Assembly (NCBI GenBank): GCA_002104985.1
Contig: MCGO01000065.1
Coordinates: forward strand, 182,187 to 246,186
Source: Rhizoclosmatium globosum
Taxonomy: Eukaryota > Chytridiomycota > Chytridiomycetes > Chytridiales > Chytriomycetaceae
DNA: 64,000 bases
Direction: 5' to 3'
Both the position numbers and the translations under genes were made by a program. Shown in pieces: positions 33,919-47,665 of the stretch (position 1 is its first letter; the number at the start of each line of letters is the position of its first letter). The notes below the pieces were generated by a model. That model was given only the letters and a program-made list of their open reading frames with translations. It was not told the origin of the DNA and made no database searches.

Positions 33919-35044
33919 ATGCAAAGCCTTCTTACCCTCGTGGCCTTGTCGTCGACTGCCCTCGCTGCTCTTAACCCATCCACTGTGATCAAGGATGTCG
34001 TCGCATTCGGAGACTCGCTCTCTGACAATGGTAACTTTTTCAAGTTGCTTGGCGCTCCTCCAGCTCCATACTGGAAGGGCCGATTGTAAGTGACAAATGT
34101 GAATAAGAGTTGAGTTAACAGAAATATAAAGCTCGAACGGTCCAGTTTGGGTTGAACAGCTCGCTATCACTCTGAACAATGCGAACTTGCATGACTATGC
34201 CTTCGGAGGAGCCGTTGCCAATAGTTCCGATGCGTACCATCAGCCACTTGCCAAGAACTTCACTGCCAGTGATTTGCCAGACTTGAGCGCACAAATCGCC
34301 CTCTGGAAAGCTGACTCTTCCGCCAACACTGTGAACTTGGACACCACTCTCTTCACTGTCTGGGCCGGATTCAACGACTTGAGTGACACAGTCAACTCCG
34401 GTAATGTTCCAAATCCAGTTGCCTTTGCAACTTACGTGTTGAACAACGTCCAAATTCTTCTCCGGTTGGGTGCCAAGAACATCTTGGTGAATGGCTTCCC
34501 TCCTCTTGACAGAGTTCCCAGATACAATAAGCTTCCTTCCGCTGCTTTGGCTCCAATCAAGCAAATTGATGATGGATTCAACTTCGTTCTCTCTGCGGGA
34601 ATCTCAAAGATTCAAGCCCTTGTCCCCAACGCCAATATCATCTTGAACGATGTTACACCTCTTCTTTTGCATATTGACACACCAGAAGGCTCTGAGTACT
34701 ATGGTTTCAAGAATATTCAAGACTCTTGTTTCAATGCTACTAGTGCGAGCGTTTGTGCTACCCCGGATGAATACTTTTTCTGGGATCAGGTTCACCCAAC
34801 CACCAAGGCTCACAAGTTCATTGCTGCTGGTGCTTACAACGCCTTGTTTAACATTTCTGGTTTCCCAACTGTTACTAGTGCTTCTACGAGCGTTGTTACT
34901 GCTTCCACAAGCGCTGTTGCTACGTCCTCGGTCGCTGTTGCTGCTACCTACGGAGTTCCTGCAACTCAAGCTCTCTATCAATCTGGTGCCAAGGAAATCG
35001 GAATGGGTTTGTTGATGGCTGCCGTCGGAATTTTGATGTTGTAA
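33919..35044 (+). CDS. GPI-anchored-type GDSL/SGNH hydrolase D
   Basis: Two exons, 33919-34085 and 34132-35044 (46-nt intron), give 359 aa. Signal peptide MQSLLTLVALSSTALA; block I DVVAFGDSLSDNGN; SNGPVWVEQLA; block III VWAGFNDLSDT; block V EYFFWDQVHPTTKAH with Asp and His. After the catalytic domain come a Ser/Thr/Ala-rich stretch (about residues 285-325) and a hydrophobic C-terminal end (IGMGLLMAAVGILML), which together look like a GPI-attachment signal. So D is probably cell-surface anchored, unlike array copies A-C. It keeps only the intron that follows the WKGR block. Close paralogue of copy E, 430 bp downstream. Confidence 0.9.
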
Positions 35045-35474: not shown

Positions 35475-38400
35475 ATGAAAAGTATCCTGTCCCTCATTCT
35501 CTTGTCGTCAACCGCCTTTGCTGTACTGAGTCCATCTACAGTAATCAAGGATGTGGTCGCGTTCGGAGACTCGCTCTCCGATAATGGCAACTTTTTCAAG
35601 TATGAAGGCACACCTCCAGCACCATACTGGCAGGGAAGATTGTAAGTAATGTGGGCCAGTAGGGAAACTCGATCCACCACCATGAGGGGAGCACTCGATA
35701 GTGCCTTCGTAACTCGTACCCCTTCCCCATGGCGGTGCACAGTGATCGAGAACACGGGCTGCGGTCGAGCTGAGCGACCCGAGGGTGCGGGTGACCTCGT
35801 TGAGACTCGAAGGTCTTGCGGGTGGCAGGTTGGTTCGGTCGACTTGACCACACCACTTGCTCTGTTTTTGGGTAACTTCTTCAATTTATTTAGATTGGGT
35901 AATTTAGAATAAAGTGGGGAGATAGAGTGGTCTTGAATCCCACTTGAACCTGCTGAACCTCGCACCACCAATTTCCAACAACACACCAAGAAAACTTCGT
36001 CCAACAAAATGAAAAGGGAAAGACCACGTATAAGACTGAAATGGAACTGGAGATAAAACAAAAGAAAGAAACAACTCCGACAGTAAAACAAGAAGAAAGG
36101 GATAGGCGAGAGCAAAAGGCGCTCGCCCACAGGCTGACAAACCAAAAGAAAATGGTAACCCCGACGAGGACTGCGGGTGGATTAGTACAAACGCTCGTAC
36201 TCAAACAACCCAACTTCAACACCCAATAGTTCCTCTTCTTCCTGCAAAAGAGAGGTTGGGAAGTCTTCAGTGGCTCCTTTCTTGTGGTAAAGCTTAACAC
36301 GAGAACCGTGAACCGCCTTCTTCAAGTGTGTACCATCCATTTCAGACAAGAAGTAAGCATTGTGCCCAATGCGGACCACCCAGTATGGCCCACAATATCT
36401 CCAACGCATTTTGGCTCCTAACATATTATCCAACTTAGAATCACGCACAATAACCAGGTCGCCTTCAGCAATGAGTTCCGACTCAGGACGTAGACGGTGG
36501 TTGCGATTAAACTGCTTGGCGCGTTGCTCTCGAGCAACAATAATCCGTTCACGAGCAAGTTCAATGTCAGCAGAACGTCGTTCAAGAATTCGAATTCGAG
36601 CTGCAATCAAATCTTCAGTCGAAGTAACAGATTCCCAATGGATCACTGCGTAAGACTCAATTACAAACTCCATTGGCAGAACTGGCTCTTGACCAAATAG
36701 GAGCTCATAGGGACTCATTCCAGTGGTTCGGCTCACAGTGATACGAGAAGCCCAAAGTGCAGCCCAAATGTGTTTGACCCACCTGCGAGGTTTGCTACCA
36801 CAAACCTTGGCTAGGGCACTGACAATGGGGACGTTTGCGCGTTCAACTTTACCATTTGCTTGTTGTCCATAGGCCATAACGATGCGACAGTTGAACAGGA
36901 GCTCTTTGGCCTTATCAGCCAATGCGCTCCCACTCAGTTCCCCTCCATCAATAACAACCTCAACCGGTACTCCATATCGGGAAATAACTTGGCGTTCAAA
37001 GTCGCGGACAATGGGTGCAGCAGACTTTCCCTTGAAGTAGCCTGCTTCGAGCCAGCCAGAAATTTCTTCGCTGTAGAGTGCAAGGTATGTTCCTTCAATT
37101 GCGACAAGGTCAACATACCAACGGCGGAACAAACCATGGAAAAGTGAATCCTTTTGCACTTCAAGCGGTTCATAGTAGCGGATGGGATTATGACGCTGAC
37201 ACGGGTCACAAAACTTGATGTGAGCAGCAGCTTCCTCCCAGATGCCTTGCCACCAGTATCGTGCAGAAATCTTGGCAACAGTTCCATGCACACTCCGATG
37301 TCCTCCACCAAAACCTTCATGGGATTGCTTGATAATAAAGTCTTTTTCGTCTCGATGACAAACAACACGTCGCGGGGGACTATTCTGGTTGTCTGGAGGC
37401 TTTCGGAAGAGAAGATCGTCTTGAACAAGGTAAAGAGAGCTTTGACGTAAGATGGCTTCCGCAGATTCAGCATCCATTCCAGGAGGGAGTTTGCCAAGAA
37501 CCAAAAACCAGTAGACGGCAGCGAGACGACCAGACAATCCAAGCTTCTTGATAGTATTTTTCACGTCCACCACATCTTCATCATAAAGTTCTGAGTCCCA
37601 CCACTTTTCACAGTCGTCCCAGGACCACTTCAAAACCTCAACAGATGGGAAAGGAAGCTGAATTCTTGCAAAGACAGGGCAATGATCTGAGCCTCGAACT
37701 TCGTGTACATGGGATGCGTCCAAAACAAGCAAAGACAGGTCAACAAGAATGCCATCAAAGCGGAAACCTTGATTCTGACGTCTGTCTGGATGCCACCAGG
37801 TTGTATATGAAACAACATTTTGGTGACAAACGCGGAAAGAATCTTGAAACTCGACGCACAACTGGCCAAGTAGATTTCTCTCAACAGGAGAGAATCCTGA
37901 TCCAATAAGACGAATCAGCGCGGGATGAATGTCAATATCCAGACGCGACACATTCCAATCACATCCAGCAATCACTTTTAATCCACGATCCCTGTAAGAC
38001 TTGAGCTCCTGTAGAGCCGCTTCCATGAATCGAAGCTTGTAGGGAACACGGAACTCTCTTCCAGCAATTGCCGCAGGGAAGTAGATGGACGTAAGAATTA
38101 TTGCGCCAAACTTGATTGCGATAAACCGACCTTCCATCAGCGTAACAGACCAACCAGAAAAGCAATTGTGTGCTTCGTCCGCATAGTCCGAAGCAAACAA
38201 CCCCTTGCGAACAAGAATAGCAACACCGTTCATACCAGAACCATATGCGCCTTTCAGTGGGACCCCATTGTCATCACACTCCACAGGATAGTCAGAATAA
38301 TAGGCAAAGTGTGTTGCCTTGTAATCCAGTCCCTGCAACTTGTCGAAACTTGCTCGACCCATGCGTGTTTCTTGCAAAAAGATGATGTCATGTTTCAGAA

Positions 38401-41400
38401 GAAACAGCCCAAACAACTCGCCCATCTTCTTGGCAGCACTTCGGATAGAATTGACATTCCAACTGATAACAGATAGAGTTGTGACGTCCACCTCAACCAC
38501 AAGACCAAGAACATTGTCCACATGTGACTCCAAATCTGATTCTTCATCTGAGTCGTTCCAGAAGTCTGGAGCGCGACTAAGAGCATCAGAAACCTTGTTG
38601 TCTTTTCCATGAACATGGAGGATTGCGACTGGATGGTAGGATCGAATTCCCAGAAGCCACCGCTTGCAAGTCTCGTCGAGTGTTGCAACCTTATCAATTG
38701 ACCCCACCACAGCTTTAGCATCCGTTTCCAAAACAAACTCCGATCCCCAGATGTAAATGTGGAGCGCCTTCAGCGCATTCAAACATCCAAGGATCTCCCG
38801 TTTGTGTTGCGGCATACGCGCCTCAACATCACTAAATCGTCCAGAAGCAAATATGACCGCATGGCGATCACCGTCTTCCTCTTGACCAAGCCATGCTCCC
38901 CATCCAATTGGCGAGCTGTCAACAGTGACAAACCTGTTACCTGCTCCCACATCATATCGAATAGCGCGAAGGACTGGATAAGCTGTCAGCGCGGCACACA
39001 AATCCTGCTTCTCGGATTCAATGGCTTCGCTATTCGCTTCAAGATCCGCGCCCTTCCGAAGCATGGAAAAGAGCGTATGTGCCCGAAGTGCAAACCGAGG
39101 AATATACTTGCGGAAAACGTTGGCAAGACCAAGGAACGACCGAATATCTGTAACTGTTTGCAGTGGACCCCAATTAGTGAGTCTCTTGACCTTGGAACCA
39201 GGTCGGCGACCATCAGAAGCACAAAGGTGACCCAAAACTTCACAGCTGCGACTACAAAAACGGGACTTCAGTCCTGATAGCGTAGCTCCAGACTCTTGAA
39301 CACGTTGAAGGATGGAACGCAGGTTACCAATATGATCGGCAACAAACTTGCGAACTCCTGGCATCACAAGAGTAGAATCAGCTTCATGAGTTTTAGGGCC
39401 TTTCACAACATAGTCGTCCACAAAGGGTCTGACCAGATGCGGAACAAACGGCTGGAGAATCTTGACTGAAGCACGTTGAGCAATGGCAACCGAATTAGTC
39501 CACCCTTGCGGAAGTGTTACCATCCGCATCAAACCAAGAGGAGTCGCAATAGCAGTTAGGTCACGACTAGATGGATCCAAGGTGAACTGGTCATACCAAG
39601 AGTGGCAATCAAGTGGAGAGTAAATGGCCAGACCTGTATATTCATTAATGACTTCCTCCGCTGCCGGTGGAATACCAGCATCGCGAATAGTGACTCGATT
39701 CAACGGTTGTAAATCCTGGATGAAACGAAGTGAGCCGTCCTTTTTAGGAACAAGGAAGAAACTGGCAGCATATGGTCCAAAACAAGGCTCCATAATGTTG
39801 GCATCAAGCTTCTCGCGTAGCAGCTTGATTAAAGCTTCCATTTGTTGGTATGGAATCTTACGTGGCTTGAACTTCCAACACTTGTGTTCCACAGTATGAA
39901 TCTTGACAGGCTCGCAGAACTCTGGCTTGACGCGACCACGGCTACCAATAGTGAATGAAAACGCAGCAGCTTCTTCTCGAAGCATAGATTTCAATAGCAC
40001 CAGTTCTGTTGGGGAAAGCCAGTCGGCATCGGAGCAGAGTGTGTCCATACGCTCGTCAGAAAGACCAATAGGATCAACTTGCCGGTCAGGAGCATCCCAA
40101 CCAAGTGGAGCAGCCCCGTCAGGAAGCATCTCCGTAGCTGGGCGTACCTTACGCGAGACAGGTTTGTACATAGTATGAACGTCAATAGCGATTCCGGCAT
40201 TCCATTGATACGTAGCATCCAACCGCGAGATACAATGCTGCAACACTTCAAAATCCAACCAAGAATCAACATAGCCGTCACGTGAGAGGGTATCCGCAAT
40301 CTGCAGCACAGAGTAGGCGGAAGCGTCGTGCGTGAAGGTTACTACTTGGGAGACAGACTCGTCTTGTGCGATCGCACCCAATCTTCGAAGATGACGCGTG
40401 GTAGCTCTTGGATAACAAATATCAGACACGTTGGATACCCAACCAGAGCCAGAAGTGACAGAGTTGGAGGCAGCAGCATTGGCCGCGTCCACAGAATGGT
40501 AGTATGAGTCCCACGACTCTGTTTGCCAGCCAGTAGCACCATCAGAACTGGAGCTGCAAACCTGTAGAGGGTATCCACTTTGCTTGCTGGATACCATCGA
40601 GCGCACCAATACAAGCTAATACCAGGGAGACAATTGAAACCAATAGTGAGGACAGGGACTTGCCACAATGAATGTAGCACAAGTAGTACTCAAGAGAGTC
40701 AGTCCAGGTGGAGAGGGTGTAGGGTACAAGTCTTTTACTTTTTGTGTTTTTGATCAACTTCCGATCAGGTTTGAAGAACCTGCAAAATTTCCACCAAAAC
40801 AGCAACAAGCTAATGACCAAAAAAAAGAAATGGAGAAACCGCCCATGCGATAAAAACCAGAGATAGAAAATGAAGGTAAGAAATGGCAAGAGAACACAAC
40901 TACAGAAGGAAATGAAAAGCTAGAATGTCCAAAAACGCAACTTAACCACGAGAGAGACGGAATCCTTGCAAGCTGTACTGATTGTCTGGGTGGAGACGGT
41001 CTGCAATCTTGAAACGCAAGACGGCATCAGTAGTAGGACAGAAAACTTTTGCCCACATATCACCGCTTTCCTCGCACCACATGTGCATTCTAGCAAGCTG
41101 GATGAACGGTTGTCCAAGAAGCATCTGGTAAGGACACTTTACTCCTTTGGCGGTGTCATCAACAATCCAACACTGAACGTGATAGACGAATCCGTGAAGA
41201 TGGACTGGAATCACTGCGAGACCAGCAAGTTGACGCACATCTCCATGTGCAGAACGCATATTGACCGTAGACGCGTCATGAACGCCGCAAAGATCCGCAA
41301 TCTTGTCCAGGATTGATCTCGCAATTGTACAAATTTGAGATCCAGTATCAAGAACAGCCGAAACAAGAATACGACCACCAAGAAGTACAATGCAACGTGG

Positions 41401-44400
41401 GGATGTTGCAATTACAAGACATCGTACACGATTATCCTTAGAAACTCCATCCTCATCATCAGTGTCACCCTCGTCCAACTCGTTAGCAAGGACTTCAATT
41501 TCCACAAAATAGGAGGAAGTTCCACGGCGCACGCGAGCACCAAGACGCGACGAGATTGAAGGGCGAGTAGGTGCATTACTCACAGGCCCGTTACCAAGTC
41601 GGCTTGCAATTCCACGAGAAGTCACAGGACTGCCAGAAGAGCCAGAACTGGTAGCAGCTTCTGAGGACCTTGGCGCAGCATTACGAGATCCAGAAAACGT
41701 CACCTCCACCGCTCCATTAGAATGACCTTCAACGAGAGGACCAAAATCCCAACCACCATCAACTTTAGTCAATTGCCAACGAAGCTTTCCTTTATCGTCA
41801 ATACCCACCGCAAGCCCCATAGACTTATGTTTTGCTAACAAGAAGCATGACGACAGTGGATGTCCCTTTTTACAGTAGAAGCAAGGTTTGGTTGACAAAC
41901 CAGTCCCATAACCCGTAGGATTTGCAGTAGAACGAATGGTTTCAACGTAAGTGGGAGGCTCGGCAATAATTTCGACGTCAGAATCCGTTTCTGGAGTTGG
42001 ATCCTCCATAAGAACATCTGTCAAGTCGTAGTAGCCGTTTCCGCAATCATCTACCTTACGAGGGGCAACAAAACCGGGGGAACCTTTGCTTCCAGGAACG
42101 CGAATAGGTTCATCCAAGGGAACAGCACGTTGCTTTCCTTTCGCATTGGTAGATTGAGGGAAAGGACCGGTGGATGGACCAGAACTGGAAGCCGAAGCTG
42201 GTGTTTCAATTGGCAAAGTTCTTGTAGAACTGGATGACAATGACACGGCAGAATGAAGGTCCTTCGATAATCTCGCGGCACCTGGGAGTTTCAGGCATGA
42301 AGGAATGGAATTTGCATCCCAATGACGCGACTCAGAATGCAATGCTTCAATGACCTCCTTAACGTCATCCGCCGAAAGCATCCCACCTTGAATAACAACA
42401 CTAGGGCCAATAACCTTGCCAGCACGGGGGGCCGGATGCCTTGAATCTCTTAACCCAATGTATGCGTTATTAAGATCCGGCATAAGGTGAGGCGTTTCTG
42501 AGGGAACCGTAGCATAGCGAGAAGTATGCGGTGCAAATTTGTCCATAACTTTGGACGAGGCAGACTGGAACTTTCGCAAAAGGTTTCTTGAAAACTCTGA
42601 CGCAGACAAATCACCAACATCATAATAGTGGTTCATAGCATCAAGGACTGCAGACAAAGAATCGGAAAAATCTGCCATGATGTCTTTAGCAGAATCGGGA
42701 AGGTCGTCTTTCATAGCTTCTGGTTCTGAATTCAAGCCAGAACCAGAACCACATGATTTCTTGGCAGCTTCAAGAACTTCATAGTAGCGTTTAAAACGTT
42801 CCAAGTAATCAGCAGTAGTTTCACCAGGACGTTCGTCAGGTGTACCGTCTTCGCAGAAAGGACCAAATTCTTCCAATACGCAAGACTCAATTGTACCAAG
42901 TTCAGCATCAGCGACTTCAAAACCCCAGGAATCAAGAGTAAGGCTAAGACCCTTGATAATATCAGCATTCGCGGCAGGGGAAGTGCGACGGGAGCGTAGA
43001 CGTTCTACAAAAGCTTTTCGCAATTCAGCAGATGAACCCAATAAAGAACGAAGTGAAATGCCCAAACCCCATTGCGCCTCCAACAGCTCCGTAACAAGAG
43101 CATTTAATTGCTCTTGGCTGAGTGCGACTGGCTCGGGCTCTTCTTTGGTAGAAGTGGGAGCGGGAGCAGCAGTGGCCTTCTTCCGCTCCTTCTTAGGCTT
43201 CTTTGTTGAGGCAGAAGGAGCAGTGGCAGGCAAAACAGCGGTTGTTGGTGGAACTACTTTTGGAGTGGGTGCGGCATTTGTTGGTTGGGCGTTGTCCATT
43301 TCCTCATCAGAATCGGACAACTCAGTTGATCGTCTTGGACCTTCACGGAATGGAACAGCATAAGGCGCAGCTTTGTCACGTGGAGATTCCCTCACTGGAA
43401 GGGTTTCCTGCCCAGGCGCTGGAGGCCAAGGAATAGTGACGTTTCCTCGAGTGCGAATAGCTGGAGCAACTTGAGCTTCGCCAGTATAGAACAAGTCAAT
43501 CACAGTGTCAAGAACATCACTAACGCGAACCATTTCCCCCGCTTGTGTGACACCCATGGCAACAAGAGCGCAATCAACTTGTTTGGGTGTAACGCGGGAG
43601 ATTTCCAATTTAGGACGTAGCACAGCGGACTTAGTAGAACCTGAAGCAACAGTTGATCTTATAACTGGAGCGAAATTCACAGAAGATTTCGCAGCTACAA
43701 GAGGCGCCAGTGGGACTGGAGAATGGAACTTGGAAGTAGACTCTTCGGTTGGGGGAGAATGGAACTTCTCGTCAAAGACAGATGATAGCATACTGACTTC
43801 AACATTTCCGTAGCTGACTCCGACAGTATTGGATGCAAGCGCCTTGGCTCTGGCTTTGGAAAACCAGTCAGGATCCCACTCAAAAGCACCTGTACCGGAA
43901 AGACTCATGATCTTCCAGCGGAGTTTCTTAGTGGCGTCAATGGCGACTGGTGCCCCACCTCTAATGTCCGAATCAAGGTGAGGGCAAGTGCCGGGGCGAT
44001 GGTTAGGCTCGTGACAATACCAACAGATAATGTTCTTGAGATCAAACGCATCAACATCAACGTCAGCTTCGAGAATCCCAACATTGGCAAGTCCGTTGAT
44101 CACCTCAGAAGTTGGCATCTGAAGCAAGATGCTCAATTTACTCATCAAATCCGAAAGCTCATTGATATTTGGCTGGATTGTAGATGCAGGTGTGGCAGCA
44201 CGTGACTGGCTTGAAGGAACACGAAGATTTGAAGAAGGGAAGACTGGAGGAGCAGATCCAGTAGCAACTGGAGGTACAGGAACGGGAGGAGTAACAGGGG
44301 TTTCAGCGGCGCCTTGGCGGAAAGGGAGATTGGCAGCACGATTAACAAAGCGAACCAAGGCAGACTGGAGCTCGTCAAGCGTGTATTCACGATCAGGATC

Positions 44401-47400
44401 CAGTGGCTGTTCACCTTGGGAGGCACGTGCAAGATCCACTTGGTTACGTTGAGCATCCATTGTGGCAAGCACCGCTTGGTTCATATCAAATCGCATCTCA
44501 CCCAACACTGCCTTGACAAGCTCGTTGTCAGGGAACTGGCCAGGATTGGACATCTTGGACCGTTTGGCAATTCCAGCAGCGACAACGTTACCCCAATGAG
44601 GACTTTCGGGAGGGAAGACACCGTAGTTCTTGATAGTAGAGAGTACGTCGGAGGATGTGACCTTCTTGTTACCACTCGCATACTGGAGACGCATGTGTTG
44701 GAGGAAGTCCTCCAAGGAAACCGGGATACCAGCAGCGTCTTGAGCAGCAACCCACGCAGTAGCATCAGCTCTGATCGCGGAGTCCTGAATGGTAGCGCCC
44801 TGGATCGCGAGGAGAACCCATTCGCGATCCTGATTGGAGCCACCCATGGCTTTAGCGTATGTAACGTAGAGTCTGAACCAGTCAGACCACTTGTCGACGT
44901 CGAAGCCATGGAACTGTTCGATCTTGAGAGCGTTAGCGACGAGAGCACCTGGATTGAGCATTAGCGACGCGTAAAACTGGTAGTTGCGCGGCAAGAGTGG
45001 GAAATGTATTGTGATAAAAGAGGTTTGTACCTGGATTGAGCATTAGCGACGCGTAAAACTGGTAGTTGCGCGGCAAGAGTGGGAAAGGCAAGGAAATCTG
45101 GAAAACTTGCTGCCTTTTAACGGGGGGACCCGCCAAGAGACAACAAATTTTCCATCTCCTCAGTATCCCGCTCACCACGCAATCCAATCCACACGCCACT
45201 AGCACTCAATCCCGTACCACAAAACAAAACAACCAAAGCTAAAGGCAGAAAGCAAAAGTATAGAACTTAAGCAAGCAAAAGCAAAAATAAAATGGGGAAA
45301 GGGTCCTAATTACAACCCTCAAAACCATACAACCATCACAGAACCCGTACAACAAAAGAACCAGCCGATTCCAATGAGGGAAGAAGCGCAAAAGCAAGAG
45401 TTGTCACTGGATTGCTTTGATGGGCTTGTACTCTTTCAAACAGCGGGCTTGAATGTAGGTACAACTCCAAGGTTTAGATCCAACAACATAACGGCGGTAG
45501 TGGTCTGGTAATGCTAGATGCGTCTGTAGCTTCCTGCACATCCATCAGAATTGAATCAACGGGAAAGAAGGAAGTAGATATCTAGTCCAACCAAGAACAC
45601 AACACCAGACGGAATCCAGAAAGAAAAGCTGTTAGTAATGCGCACATTAGACGTACAACTCTCCCGTATCAGAGGCAGGAATGAATCGGGAGGCTTCCAT
45701 CACCAGGCTTGTGACCAACTTGCAAAATGAACTGGATAGCGTGAAACCAACAAGAATAAGAATCATTGACGTGGCTAATTCCGTAGCAATGCCATAGCCA
45801 AAGTCAGAAGTCCAAGTTTGAGGAGCGTCTCGATCAAGGATATCAAGGCTTGTTTGGCTGACGCATCGCTGTAACACCACGTTCTGAAACTACAATACAA
45901 CGCGTGGAATGTACTCGTAAACTCTGAGTTTGTAGGTTGACGATATGAGTCCGAAGAGACTCTGCGACACTTGTAGACCAAGGGGAAAATCCGTAGAAAC
46001 CCAACCCAATGCCAAATCAACCAAAACAGCATATCTGGGATTCGGACTTCCAGAAGAAGGGTCGTAGGCGTGGGTAGGAATCGAAGCAAGTGCTTGATCG
46101 TCGATTGCCTTTGATCGGGAGTGGATACCATGTGGATACCCTCTCCAACTTGACCAAAACGGCGTGTAAACCCTTGAGAAACGCGCGAAATCGCTAGTAG
46201 ATGATCCACAACAGATCAAGTAGTCTGGTAGAAGGCAGCGTCTGTGGGCCAGTAGGGAAACTCGATCCACCACCATGAGGGGAGCACTCGATAGTGCCTT
46301 CGTAACTCGTACCCCTTCCCCATGGCGGTGCACAGTGATCGAGAACACGGGCTGCGGTCGAGCTGAGCGACCCGAGGGTGCGGGTGACCTCGTTGAGACT
46401 CGAAGGTCTTGCGGGTGGCAGGTTGGTTCGGTCGACTTGACCACACCACTTGCTCTGTTTTTGGGTAACTTCTTCAATTTATTTAGATTGGGTAATTTAG
46501 AATAAAGTGGGGAGATAGAGTGGTCTTGAATCCCACTTGAACCTGCTGAACCTCGCACCACCAATTTCCAACAACACACCAAGAAAACTTCGTCCAACAA
46601 AATGAAAAGGGAAAGACCACGTATAAGACTGAAATGGAACTGGAGATAAAACAAAAGAAAGAAACAACTCCGACAGTAAAACAAGAAGAAAGGGATAGGC
46701 GAGAGCAAAAGGCGCTCGCCCACAGTAACACCTTCGAATATCAGTTATATTAACGCAACTTCTACAGCTCGAACGGTCCTGTTTGGGTTGAGCAGCTTGC
46801 TGAAACGTTGAACAACGCGAACTTACACAATTATGCCGTTGCTGGAGCCGTTGCCAACGTGACGGATGCGTACCATCATCCAATTTGGTTTTCAAAGTCA
46901 CTCACTGCCAATGACTTACCAGATTTGAGCAAGCAAATCGCCAACTGGAAAGCCGACTCCTCTGCCAATGCACTGAACTTGGACACGACGCTCTTCACTA
47001 TCTGGGCTGGGGCAAACGACTTGACATACACTGTTGATTCTGGCAACATTCCTGACCCAGTTGCCTATGCAACCGACATTCTAACTGGTGTAAAAATGCT
47101 CATCCAATCGGGAGCCAAGAACATTTTGGTAAACGGCTTCGCACCTCTTGAAAGACTTCCAATGAACAACAAGCTTGCCTCTACGGCCACATCTCAAATC
47201 AAGCAAGTTGTTGACGGATTCAATGCCGTTCTTTCAGCTGGAATTTCAAACCTTCAAGGCGTTGCCCCCAAAGCCAACATCATTTTTAACGACGTCACTC
47301 CTCTTCTTTACTATACAGTCACTCCTGAAGGTTCCGCTTATTACGGGTTCAAGAATGTGGAAGATGCGTGCAACACAATTACAGCGAATGCTACTATTCT

Positions 47401-47665
47401 TAGTACCTGCGCCAATCCTGATGACTACTTTTTTTGGGATGTTGTTCACCCAACCACCAAGGCTCACAAGTTAATTGCTGCTGGTGCTTACAACACGCTC
47501 TTCAACATTTCTGGATTCCCAACTGTTTTAAAGGCCACTGCGAGTGCAATTATTACATCCTTTTTGCCACTTACTACAACTGCTACGCAAGGTCTCATTC
47601 AATCTGGTGCCAAAGAAATCGGAATGTGTTTGTTGATGGCTGCAGTTGGAATTTTGATGTTTTGA
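35475..47665 (+). CDS. GPI-anchored-type GDSL/SGNH hydrolase E, intron interrupted by an LTR retroelement
   Basis: Exon 1 is 35475-35641, exon 2 is 46768-47665; joined they give an intact 354-aa protein. Signal peptide MKSILSLILLSSTAFA; block I DVVAFGDSLSDNGN; SNGPVWVEQLA; block III IWAGANDLTYT; block V DYFFWDVVHPTTKAH; C-terminal hydrophobic tail IGMCLLMAAVGILMF. Exon 1 is exactly as long as in copy D (167 nt). The intron (35642-46767) contains a complete LTR element in antisense orientation. Removing the element and one GTAA copy leaves a 47-nt intron with donor GTAAGT and acceptor CTACAG. Whether the 11-kb intron is still spliced is unknown. Confidence 0.88.
35646..35649. repeat. Target-site duplication GTAA, left copy
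   Basis: GTAA directly precedes the left LTR and recurs directly after the right LTR at 46725-46728. The 4-bp duplication falls inside the donor region of the host intron and is the footprint of integrase-mediated insertion. Confidence 0.85.
35650..36131 (-). repeat. Left LTR (3' LTR of the element)
   Basis: 482 bp, starting TGTGGGCC and ending GCCCACA. By eye it is identical to the copy at 46243-46724. Reading frames across the LTR appear twice only because the LTR is repeated. Confidence 0.95.
36182..40609 (-). CDS. pol: Pol polyprotein: RT, RNase H, APEX1/ExoIII-like endonuclease, integrase
   Basis: 1475 aa from ATG at 40609. RT at about 250-510: SPLDCHSWYD with Asp334, and FVDDY with Asp398/Asp399. 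RNase H at about 555-685: Asp564 (TVDSS), Glu605, Asp630 (LETD), Asp675 (VSDALSR). EEP domain at about 710-985: SWNVN Asn718, FLQET Glu747, CDWNV Asp884/Asn886, FSPVERN, FRFDGILV, GSDHCPV Asp975/His976. Integrase: HHCC finger His1097, His1104, Cys1134, Cys1137; core Asp1167, Asp1221, Glu1256. The endonuclease segment matches APEX1/ExoIII more closely than LINE endonucleases. The frame differs from the gag ORF and begins 333 bp beyond it, so pol needs a separate or spliced message or another recoding route. Confidence 0.93.
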   Translation of the reverse strand: MVRSMVSSKQSGYPLQVCSSSSDGATGWQTESWDSYYHSVDAANAAASNSVTSGSGWVSNVSDICYPRATTRHLRRLGAIAQDESVSQVVTFTHDASAYSVLQIADTLSRDGYVDSWLDFEVLQHCISRLDATYQWNAGIAIDVHTMYKPVSRKVRPATEMLPDGAAPLGWDAPDRQVDPIGLSDERMDTLCSDADWLSPTELVLLKSMLREEAAAFSFTIGSRGRVKPEFCEPVKIHTVEHKCWKFKPRKIPYQQMEALIKLLREKLDANIMEPCFGPYAASFFLVPKKDGSLRFIQDLQPLNRVTIRDAGIPPAAEEVINEYTGLAIYSPLDCHSWYDQFTLDPSSRDLTAIATPLGLMRMVTLPQGWTNSVAIAQRASVKILQPFVPHLVRPFVDDYVVKGPKTHEADSTLVMPGVRKFVADHIGNLRSILQRVQESGATLSGLKSRFCSRSCEVLGHLCASDGRRPGSKVKRLTNWGPLQTVTDIRSFLGLANVFRKYIPRFALRAHTLFSMLRKGADLEANSEAIESEKQDLCAALTAYPVLRAIRYDVGAGNRFVTVDSSPIGWGAWLGQEEDGDRHAVIFASGRFSDVEARMPQHKREILGCLNALKALHIYIWGSEFVLETDAKAVVGSIDKVATLDETCKRWLLGIRSYHPVAILHVHGKDNKVSDALSRAPDFWNDSDEESDLESHVDNVLGLVVEVDVTTLSVISWNVNSIRSAAKKMGELFGLFLLKHDIIFLQETRMGRASFDKLQGLDYKATHFAYYSDYPVECDDNGVPLKGAYGSGMNGVAILVRKGLFASDYADEAHNCFSGWSVTLMEGRFIAIKFGAIILTSIYFPAAIAGREFRVPYKLRFMEAALQELKSYRDRGLKVIAGCDWNVSRLDIDIHPALIRLIGSGFSPVERNLLGQLCVEFQDSFRVCHQNVVSYTTWWHPDRRQNQGFRFDGILVDLSLLVLDASHVHEVRGSDHCPVFARIQLPFPSVEVLKWSWDDCEKWWDSELYDEDVVDVKNTIKKLGLSGRLAAVYWFLVLGKLPPGMDAESAEAILRQSSLYLVQDDLLFRKPPDNQNSPPRRVVCHRDEKDFIIKQSHEGFGGGHRSVHGTVAKISARYWWQGIWEEAAAHIKFCDPCQRHNPIRYYEPLEVQKDSLFHGLFRRWYVDLVAIEGTYLALYSEEISGWLEAGYFKGKSAAPIVRDFERQVISRYGVPVEVVIDGGELSGSALADKAKELLFNCRIVMAYGQQANGKVERANVPIVSALAKVCGSKPRRWVKHIWAALWASRITVSRTTGMSPYELLFGQEPVLPMEFVIESYAVIHWESVTSTEDLIAARIRILERRSADIELARERIIVAREQRAKQFNRNHRLRPESELIAEGDLVIVRDSKLDNMLGAKMRWRYCGPYWVVRIGHNAYFLSEMDGTHLKKAVHGSRVKLYHKKGATEDFPTSLLQEEEELLGVEVGLFEYERLY
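40942..44994 (-). CDS. gag-pro: Gag-protease polyprotein with duplicated zinc-knuckle module
   Basis: 1350 aa from ATG at 44994; a spliced form could start at 45205. N-terminal helical capsid-like region (about 1-220). Zinc knuckle 1 at about 325 is C-x2-C-x4-H-x4-C (CWYCHEPNHRPGTC). Zinc knuckle 2 at about 1037 is C-x2-C-x3-H-x4-C (CFYCKKGHPLSSC). Each is followed by a related module with KLRW, a Gly-rich turn, F-x-P/D and NVEV or AVEV. A long low-complexity linker lies between them. The retropepsin is at the C terminus: AVLDTGSQICT (Asp about 1216) and MLLGQPFI. Gag and protease share one frame, which is less usual than gag-pro-pol fusion. Confidence 0.9.
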   Translation of the reverse strand: MPRNYQFYASLMLNPGALVANALKIEQFHGFDVDKWSDWFRLYVTYAKAMGGSNQDREWVLLAIQGATIQDSAIRADATAWVAAQDAAGIPVSLEDFLQHMRLQYASGNKKVTSSDVLSTIKNYGVFPPESPHWGNVVAAGIAKRSKMSNPGQFPDNELVKAVLGEMRFDMNQAVLATMDAQRNQVDLARASQGEQPLDPDREYTLDELQSALVRFVNRAANLPFRQGAAETPVTPPVPVPPVATGSAPPVFPSSNLRVPSSQSRAATPASTIQPNINELSDLMSKLSILLQMPTSEVINGLANVGILEADVDVDAFDLKNIICWYCHEPNHRPGTCPHLDSDIRGGAPVAIDATKKLRWKIMSLSGTGAFEWDPDWFSKARAKALASNTVGVSYGNVEVSMLSSVFDEKFHSPPTEESTSKFHSPVPLAPLVAAKSSVNFAPVIRSTVASGSTKSAVLRPKLEISRVTPKQVDCALVAMGVTQAGEMVRVSDVLDTVIDLFYTGEAQVAPAIRTRGNVTIPWPPAPGQETLPVRESPRDKAAPYAVPFREGPRRSTELSDSDEEMDNAQPTNAAPTPKVVPPTTAVLPATAPSASTKKPKKERKKATAAPAPTSTKEEPEPVALSQEQLNALVTELLEAQWGLGISLRSLLGSSAELRKAFVERLRSRRTSPAANADIIKGLSLTLDSWGFEVADAELGTIESCVLEEFGPFCEDGTPDERPGETTADYLERFKRYYEVLEAAKKSCGSGSGLNSEPEAMKDDLPDSAKDIMADFSDSLSAVLDAMNHYYDVGDLSASEFSRNLLRKFQSASSKVMDKFAPHTSRYATVPSETPHLMPDLNNAYIGLRDSRHPAPRAGKVIGPSVVIQGGMLSADDVKEVIEALHSESRHWDANSIPSCLKLPGAARLSKDLHSAVSLSSSSTRTLPIETPASASSSGPSTGPFPQSTNAKGKQRAVPLDEPIRVPGSKGSPGFVAPRKVDDCGNGYYDLTDVLMEDPTPETDSDVEIIAEPPTYVETIRSTANPTGYGTGLSTKPCFYCKKGHPLSSCFLLAKHKSMGLAVGIDDKGKLRWQLTKVDGGWDFGPLVEGHSNGAVEVTFSGSRNAAPRSSEAATSSGSSGSPVTSRGIASRLGNGPVSNAPTRPSISSRLGARVRRGTSSYFVEIEVLANELDEGDTDDEDGVSKDNRVRCLVIATSPRCIVLLGGRILVSAVLDTGSQICTIARSILDKIADLCGVHDASTVNMRSAHGDVRQLAGLAVIPVHLHGFVYHVQCWIVDDTAKGVKCPYQMLLGQPFIQLARMHMWCEESGDMWAKVFCPTTDAVLRFKIADRLHPDNQYSLQGFRLSRG
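44947..45086 (-). repeat. 58-bp direct repeat (period 82) across the gag start, possible intron
   Basis: The 58-bp segment at 44947-45004 recurs exactly at 45029-45086, with 24 unique bases between. On the minus strand each copy ends AATCCAG followed by GT. A splice using GTACAAAC in the upstream copy and AATCCAG in the downstream copy would remove exactly 82 nt and fuse an upstream frame (ATG at 45205) into gag in phase. Repeat identity is read directly; splicing is an inference. Confidence 0.75.
46243..46724 (-). repeat. Right LTR (5' LTR of the element)
   Basis: 482 bp, no difference seen from the left copy, ending GCCCACA before the GTAA duplication at 46725. In element sense it is the promoter-bearing LTR and is followed by a leader of about 1.2 kb without a convincing gene. 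Confidence 0.95.

What the first reader, a model, noticed from the sequence alone, without database searches (positions are those of the whole stretch)
37655..38482. LTR retroelement whose pol carries an APEX1/ExoIII-like endonuclease between RNase H and integrase
In one uninterrupted 1475-aa ORF, RT and RNase H are followed by about 275 residues with all the AP-endonuclease blocks (SWNVN, FLQET, CDWNV, FSPVERN, FRFDGILV, GSDHCPV), then by an HHCC/DDE integrase. AP endonucleases are the integration enzymes of LINE elements. An LTR element holding both such a nuclease and an integrase is not a layout I know. The nuclease resembles host APEX1/ExoIII (the FTPQER and GSDHCP signatures) rather than LINE endonucleases, suggesting capture of a repair gene. 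It might nick AP sites to choose targets, trim cDNA ends or remove RNA primers.
Basis: partly seen in the sequence, partly recalled or inferred. Interest (0 to 1): 0.9.

Follow-up and report, generated by a model that had tools for sequence, protein, structure and literature searches.

The report
Fungal jumping genes with DNA-repair nuclease
A retrovirus-like jumping gene in a fungal genome encodes, besides its integrase, a DNA-repair-type nuclease inside its replication polyprotein, as do most of the related integrase loci found in that genome, and this nuclease is predicted to tidy the element's DNA copy before it is inserted.

The parts
35650..36131 (-). 3' LTR of the element (482 bp, TG...CA)
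   Evidence: identical direct repeat with 46243-46724
46243..46724 (-). 5' LTR of the element
35646..35649 (.). target-site duplication GTAA, one side
46725..46728 (.). target-site duplication GTAA, other side
46224..46242 (-). primer binding site region, complementary to a tRNA-Thr-type 3' end but with a trailer-like stretch in place of the CCA complement
40942..44994 (-). ORF1, 1350 aa, gag-like part (zinc-knuckle-like CX2CX4HX4C motif) and protease
41104..41379 (-). aspartic protease domain (PF13650, residues 1206-1297 of ORF1; 25 bits, cut-off 24.3)
36182..40609 (-). ORF2 = pol, 1475 aa: RT, RNase H, EEP, integrase
39227..39751 (-). reverse transcriptase (RVT_1)
38636..38932 (-). RNase H (RT_RNaseH)
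37655..38482 (-). ExoIII/APE1-type EEP nuclease, residues 710-985 of pol
37184..37342 (-). integrase zinc-binding domain (HHCC)
36842..37111 (-). integrase catalytic D1167, D1221, E1256

Best explanation
This is a Ty3/Gypsy-type LTR retrotransposon whose pol polyprotein carries an exonuclease III/APE1-type nuclease between RNase H and integrase, and the nuclease likely acts on the newly made DNA copy, trimming and cleaning its 3' ends and opening abasic or blocked sites for repair, so that the element's own integrase would insert a finished molecule. Shown: the domain order, complete active-site residues of nuclease and integrase, recurrence at 48 of 60 integrase matches of the genome, purifying selection on the nuclease, and 4-bp target duplications. 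Inferred: release by the element's protease, nuclease activity itself, the cDNA as its substrate, and capture from a cellular repair gene.
For: Fold and active site are those of ExoIII/APE1; E38, Y134, D175, N177, D243, D266 and H267 are invariant in 13 of 13 LTR-element EEPs, N9 in the rows that reach it. Purifying selection between copies, pN/pS 0.061. The enzyme sits inside pol next to RT/RNase H and integrase in two RT lineages, so it is made together with the cDNA enzymes. Integrase is intact and duplications are 4 bp in 5 of 5 copies, so the second nuclease is not needed to explain integration itself. Primer sites start 1 nt (A2), 3 nt (C1) and, where the LTR end is only inferred, 1 nt (B1) beyond the LTR, so cDNA ends should carry extra bases to remove. 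dUTPase, another enzyme that protects cDNA, occupies comparable slots: between RNase H and IN in lentiviruses, beside PR in beta-retroviruses (PMC4261571, passages). ExoIII-family 3' exonuclease, 3' repair and AP endonuclease activities are established knowledge of the family.
Against: No activity was or could be tested. Retroviral integrases do their own 3' processing (recalled). In 11 of 60 integrase matches of the same genome RT and IN come without an EEP, so it is not needed by every such element. The Trp of the ExoIII GWRLDY motif is Phe in A and Met or Ala in B, so abasic-site preference may be lost there. B3 copies show 4 silent and 5 replacement changes, no constraint by themselves.
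Confidence: 0.5

Rival explanations
1. The nuclease nicks chromosomal DNA, as LINE endonucleases do, and so chooses targets or primes reverse transcription at the target.
For: EEP nucleases do this in LINEs (established knowledge); 26 fetched loci with EEP elements hold no tRNA gene, whereas two copies of an EEP-less family sit 8 and 4 bp from tRNA genes, so target choice does differ.
Against: Fixed 4-bp duplications in 5 of 5 copies, complete LTR pairs and intact DD35E; EEP is nearer ExoIII than the LINE endonucleases.
Confidence: 0.1
2. The nuclease works on RNA: it removes tRNA or other RNA primers, or helps RNase H on the RNA/DNA hybrid.
For: ExoIII-family enzymes have RNase H-type activity (recalled). 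A1, A3, B1 and B2 show no purine run of 8 or more next to the 3' LTR, so plus-strand priming may be unusual there.
Against: C1 has both an EEP and an ordinary-looking purine tract; the elements already have RNase H.
Confidence: 0.17
3. The nuclease is a passenger domain without a role in replication.
For: Genes captured by rotifer LTR elements showed no significant departure from neutrality (PMC5408684, passages); the B3 pair here gives 4 silent and 5 replacement changes.
Against: Pooled pN/pS 0.061 and an invariant active site across deeply split elements.
Confidence: 0.08
4. The nuclease acts on host DNA or RNA, for example against host defence or competing elements.
For: EEP folds also serve as host-directed nucleases in other systems (recalled).
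Against: It is built into pol between the cDNA enzymes and has no sign of separate expression in the sequence.
Confidence: 0.07

Closest known systems
Exonuclease III / APE1 family (TIGR00633 xth, PF03372)
   Different: part of an LTR-element polyprotein; Trp of GWRLDY replaced in A and B kinds
Ty3/Gypsy LTR retrotransposons (Metaviridae)
   Same: LTRs, protease, RT-RNase H-integrase order, tRNA primer site, short duplications
   Different: an extra nuclease in pol; 1 of 120 listed Gypsy pols from elsewhere has one
Kuafuorterviruses (PMC11673190, passages)
   Same: LTR lineage with Exo_endo_phos said to be present sporadically, possibly from hosts
   Different: animal elements of 5-6 kb with xADD in RT; no position or role of the domain given in the passages seen
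dUTPase in lentiviruses and beta-retroviruses (PMC4261571, passages)
   Same: accessory nucleic-acid enzyme in two pol/pro positions, one of them between RNase H and integrase
   Different: acts on nucleotides, not on DNA
DEDDy exonuclease ORF3 in bdelloid LTR elements (PMC5408684, passages)
   Same: 3'-end nuclease captured more than once by LTR elements
   Different: unrelated fold, separate ORF outside pol
Dnmt3 in charophyte Gypsy pol (PMC5890265, passages)
   Same: foreign DNA enzyme fused into Gypsy pol and under purifying selection
   Different: methyltransferase
LINE apurinic endonuclease
   Same: same superfamily and catalytic residues
   Different: lies outside the group of ExoIII and LTR-element EEPs in the tree (100/100); serves elements without an integrase

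Membership tests
ExoIII/APE1-type EEP nuclease (TIGR00633) | curated model cut-off 99.05 bits | tested here: met
   132.1 bits
ExoIII/APE1-type EEP nuclease (TIGR00633) | catalytic Asn, Glu, Tyr, Asp-x-Asn, Asp, Asp-His | tested here: met
   N718, E747, Y843, D884, N886, D952, D975, H976
ExoIII/APE1-type EEP nuclease (TIGR00633) | fold | tested here: met
ExoIII/APE1-type EEP nuclease (TIGR00633) | AP endonuclease / 3' exonuclease activity | not testable with these tools
   needs protein; the conserved Trp near the active site is Phe in the window protein
Ty3/Gypsy LTR retrotransposon | two LTRs with TG...CA and a short target duplication | tested here: met
   482 bp, identical, GTAA
Ty3/Gypsy LTR retrotransposon | PR, RT, RNase H, integrase in this order | tested here: met
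Ty3/Gypsy LTR retrotransposon | RT falls with Ty3/Gypsy RTs | tested here: inconclusive
   best solved relative is Ty3, but A+B form a long separate branch and no other LTR superfamily was in the tree
LINE (non-LTR) element | no LTRs, no DDE integrase, EN ahead of RT | tested here: not met
   LTRs, integrase present, EEP after RNase H
Kuafuorterviruses | IADD/VADD/LADD in RT instead of YXDD | tested here: not met
   window RT has FVDD; motif as given in PMC11673190
DNA uridine endonuclease (Mth212 type) | Trp205 | tested here: not met
   Thr in the window protein at the aligned place; that W205 matters is inferred from the title of a mutant entry

The most novel reading that the evidence does not exclude
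A radiation of fungal LTR retrotransposons has a standing extra enzyme in pol: an ExoIII-type nuclease, captured at least twice (A+B and C+D) and settled in slots like those that dUTPase took in retroviruses, finishes the 3' ends and clears lesions of the cDNA so that integrase acts only on ready molecules; integration becomes a two-nuclease process not described for any LTR element that I found.
Probability: 0.3. Interest if true: 0.87.

Novelty: new variant of a known kind. Interest (0 to 1): 0.74.

Why it matters
LTR elements and retroviruses are thought to get by with PR, RT, RNase H and integrase. Here a DNA-repair-type nuclease sits inside pol at 48 of 60 integrase matches of one fungal genome, under strong selection and in two pol positions. 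That makes a question testable: do LTR elements need help with damaged or unfinished cDNA ends, and is a repair enzyme recruited for it repeatedly, as dUTPase was in retroviruses? It also warns that an Exo_endo_phos domain beside RT does not prove a LINE in automated transposon classification.

Tried and rejected
Rejected: misassembly (copies at other sites with their own duplications). Rejected: chance motif match. Rejected: a LINE, or a LINE endonuclease in an LTR element. Rejected: priming by an internal half of a tRNA, my first reading of the primer site, dropped when one search showed the match to be a tRNA 3' end. Not settled: one capture or two. In the EEP tree A+B, C+D and cellular ExoIII are three branches; holding all LTR EEPs together is not rejected (p-AU 0.27), nor is it for the RTs (p-AU 0.53). 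Placement of the B2 and of one EEP-less RT is unsure (long branches).

Led nowhere: a search with the window's EEP inside full-length pol gave 1 protein, a 919-aa non-retroelement one at E 6e-4. One viral-contig scan with six peptide patterns of the C1 pol found nothing. The comparison with viral structures did not run. Folding of the segments before the 3' LTR: in 4 of 6 the structure is no more stable than about a fifth or more of shuffles. Papers: ten searches that ran; passages of 13 papers were read, the other papers only as listing rows; none of what I saw describes this layout.
Full report
What is there. The window belongs to a 56.9-Mb, 420-contig assembly, most likely of a fungus: 39 matches to the fungal transcription-factor domain PF04082 (the 14 control genomes, none of which matches, are no eukaryotes as far as their names show). 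At 35650-46724, minus strand, lies an LTR element: two identical LTRs of 482 bp with TG...CA ends and GTAA on either side. It splits a GDSL-lipase-type gene, whose parts lie just outside the LTRs, beside an unsplit paralogue; that the break is in an intron is inferred by comparing the two. ORF1 (40942-44994) has a zinc-knuckle-like motif and an aspartic protease; ORF2 (36182-40609) is pol.

Not a one-off. The window's EEP matches 28 places of its genome; the xth model matches 67. I crossed the 60 Integrase_H2C2 matches with RT and xth matches on the same strand within about 6 kb upstream: 48 of 60 have an EEP upstream, 33 of them as RT-EEP-IN, 4 as EEP-RT-IN and 11 without a scored RT; 11 have RT but no EEP, 1 has neither. 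Of the 11 without a scored RT, three (C146, C347, C411) are one EEP-first family by DNA identity, and Pfam sees a weak RT after the EEP in C146. The counts include broken copies, are lower bounds for repeats by the tool's own note, and may count some allelic contigs twice. Of 12 ORFs scanned by Pfam (6, 6), 9 hold EEP and integrase zinc domain in one frame (in 2 of these 9 the EEP is below Pfam's cut-off) and 3 are shorter frames with the EEP alone. Three kinds result: A (the window; RT-RH-EEP-IN), B (EEP ahead of RT-RH-IN), C/D (RT-RH-EEP-IN in longer elements with a typical Gypsy RT).

Elsewhere. With part of the C1 pol as query, the 120 best of 808 proteins were listed, and 1 of these 120 carries PF03372: P0126, from another public source, with RT, RNase H and EEP and the stretch towards the integrase, 46% identical over 963 columns to C1. 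The same kind of search with the window's own EEP found no such protein. So the layout looks rare among Gypsy pols but not private to this genome.

Selection. Between copies of one family the EEP shows 58 silent and 13 replacement changes over star pairs, pN/pS 0.061, p 4e-27 (L019 left out). Star pairs share branches, so the p-value is too small; single pairs such as L031-L032 (14 to 1) and L027-L028 (10 to 0) carry the signal, B3 (4 to 5) does not. Across 13 LTR-element EEPs, down to 26% identity with the window's, seven active-site columns do not vary.

Origin. In the EEP tree A+B (100/96), C+D (100/99) and 32 ExoIII-type proteins (97/94) are three clades; two LINE endonucleases of this genome, so called because an RT but no H2C2 match follows them, stand outside. 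The 32 are a sample of the best hits to the LTR-element profile; eukaryotic APE1 proteins were not added. In the RT tree A+B is one branch (100/100) and C+D+P0126 another (97/98), the latter among 21 RTs of proteins without a listed EEP domain. Either the two groups took up the nuclease separately or it was lost in between; neither tree decides (p-AU 0.27 and 0.53). The window EEP is 29-36% identical to 17 ExoIII-type proteins and 26-28% to C/D EEPs. So capture from a repair gene is likely but the donor is unknown.

How it works. Integration looks integrase-made: GTAA (window), CTAC (C90), GTAG (C387), CCGC (C54, A2) and CGCT (C416, C1) are all 4 bp; the other copies lacked a flank or an LTR edge in what I fetched. 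This speaks against LINE-like nicking. Primer sites begin 1 nt (A2) and 3 nt (C1) beyond the LTR, and 1 nt in B1 where the LTR end is only inferred, so the cDNA should carry extra end bases. An ExoIII-type enzyme (3' exonuclease, 3' repair, AP endonuclease; established for the family) could remove them and open blocked or abasic sites for RT to refill. dUTPase, another guard of cDNA, uses comparable places in retroviruses (PMC4261571, passages). I commit to processing of cDNA ends and lesions at 0.5. The exact substrate is open: the Trp of the ExoIII motif GWRLDY is kept in C and D but is Phe in A and Met or Ala in B, so A and B may have lost abasic-site preference; Trp205 of the uridine endonuclease Mth212 is Thr in the window protein.

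Known or new. In what I could search, one sentence comes near: Exo_endo_phos 'only present sporadically' in Kuafuorterviruses, perhaps from hosts (PMC11673190, passages). Precedents for captured enzymes in LTR elements: DEDDy exonuclease, GDSL esterase and dUTPase in rotifers (PMC5408684, passages), Dnmt3 in a Gypsy pol (PMC5890265, passages), a 2-ODD ORF in orchid Gypsy elements (PMC9289625, passages), extra RNase H and chromodomain in oomycetes (PMC5348765, passages). The fungal LTR survey PMC3248453 (passages) names chromodomains and 'complex transposons' with inserted domains, shown in a figure I could not see. A fungal co-option screen (PMC10799480, passages) files Exo_endo_phos under LINEs. 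Searches: open-access text only, so a description elsewhere is possible. I call it a new variant of a known kind: an LTR element with a captured enzyme, new in the enzyme's place and in its spread within one genome.

Noticed in passing
L011, L012, L015-L019, L025, L031-L034, upstream of the 3' LTR or of the element's 3' end: A hairpin with a G-rich loop (AGGG, AAGGGAC, AGGGGGC or AAGGGGC) and unrelated stems recurs in A2, B1, B2, C1, C2 and C4 elements; in A2, B1, B2 and C1 the loop lies 31-39 nt before the LTR. The window copy has only a G run there. 30 such hairpins against 16 in shuffles over all loci, copies not independent.
   Followed up: partly
window 46224-46242: The primer site of the window family lacks the CCA complement of its tRNA-Thr-type primer and continues into a stretch like the 3' trailer of two of the matching genes (GCGTT), as if copied from an unprocessed tRNA; the A2 family has the ordinary CCA-containing site.
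   Followed up: partly
window 36132-36290; L013, L016, L019: No purine run of 8 or more abuts the 3' LTR in A1, A3, B1 and B2 (nearest in A1 and A3 more than 100 nt off), unlike C1; plus-strand priming may be unusual.
   Followed up: partly
L060 168-248, L061 171-248: Two copies of an EEP-less element family end 8 and 4 bp from tRNA-Glu and tRNA-Cys genes, as Ty3 does (recalled); no tRNA gene was found in 26 loci with EEP elements.
   Followed up: partly
window 44947-45004 and 45029-45086: A perfect 58-nt direct duplication spans the start of ORF1, 82 nt apart; it might be an intron or a recent duplication.
   Followed up: no
L017 194-586 and 9493-9885: LTRs of the B2 family hold tandem copies of about 200 bp, about 83% alike.
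   Followed up: no
contigs C68/C79 and C35/C312 of the genome: Pairs of contigs carry the same matches with equal or near-equal scores, as if both haplotypes were assembled.
   Followed up: no
window 33919-35044 and 35475-47665: Two neighbouring GDSL-lipase-type genes; the second is split by the element.
   Followed up: partly
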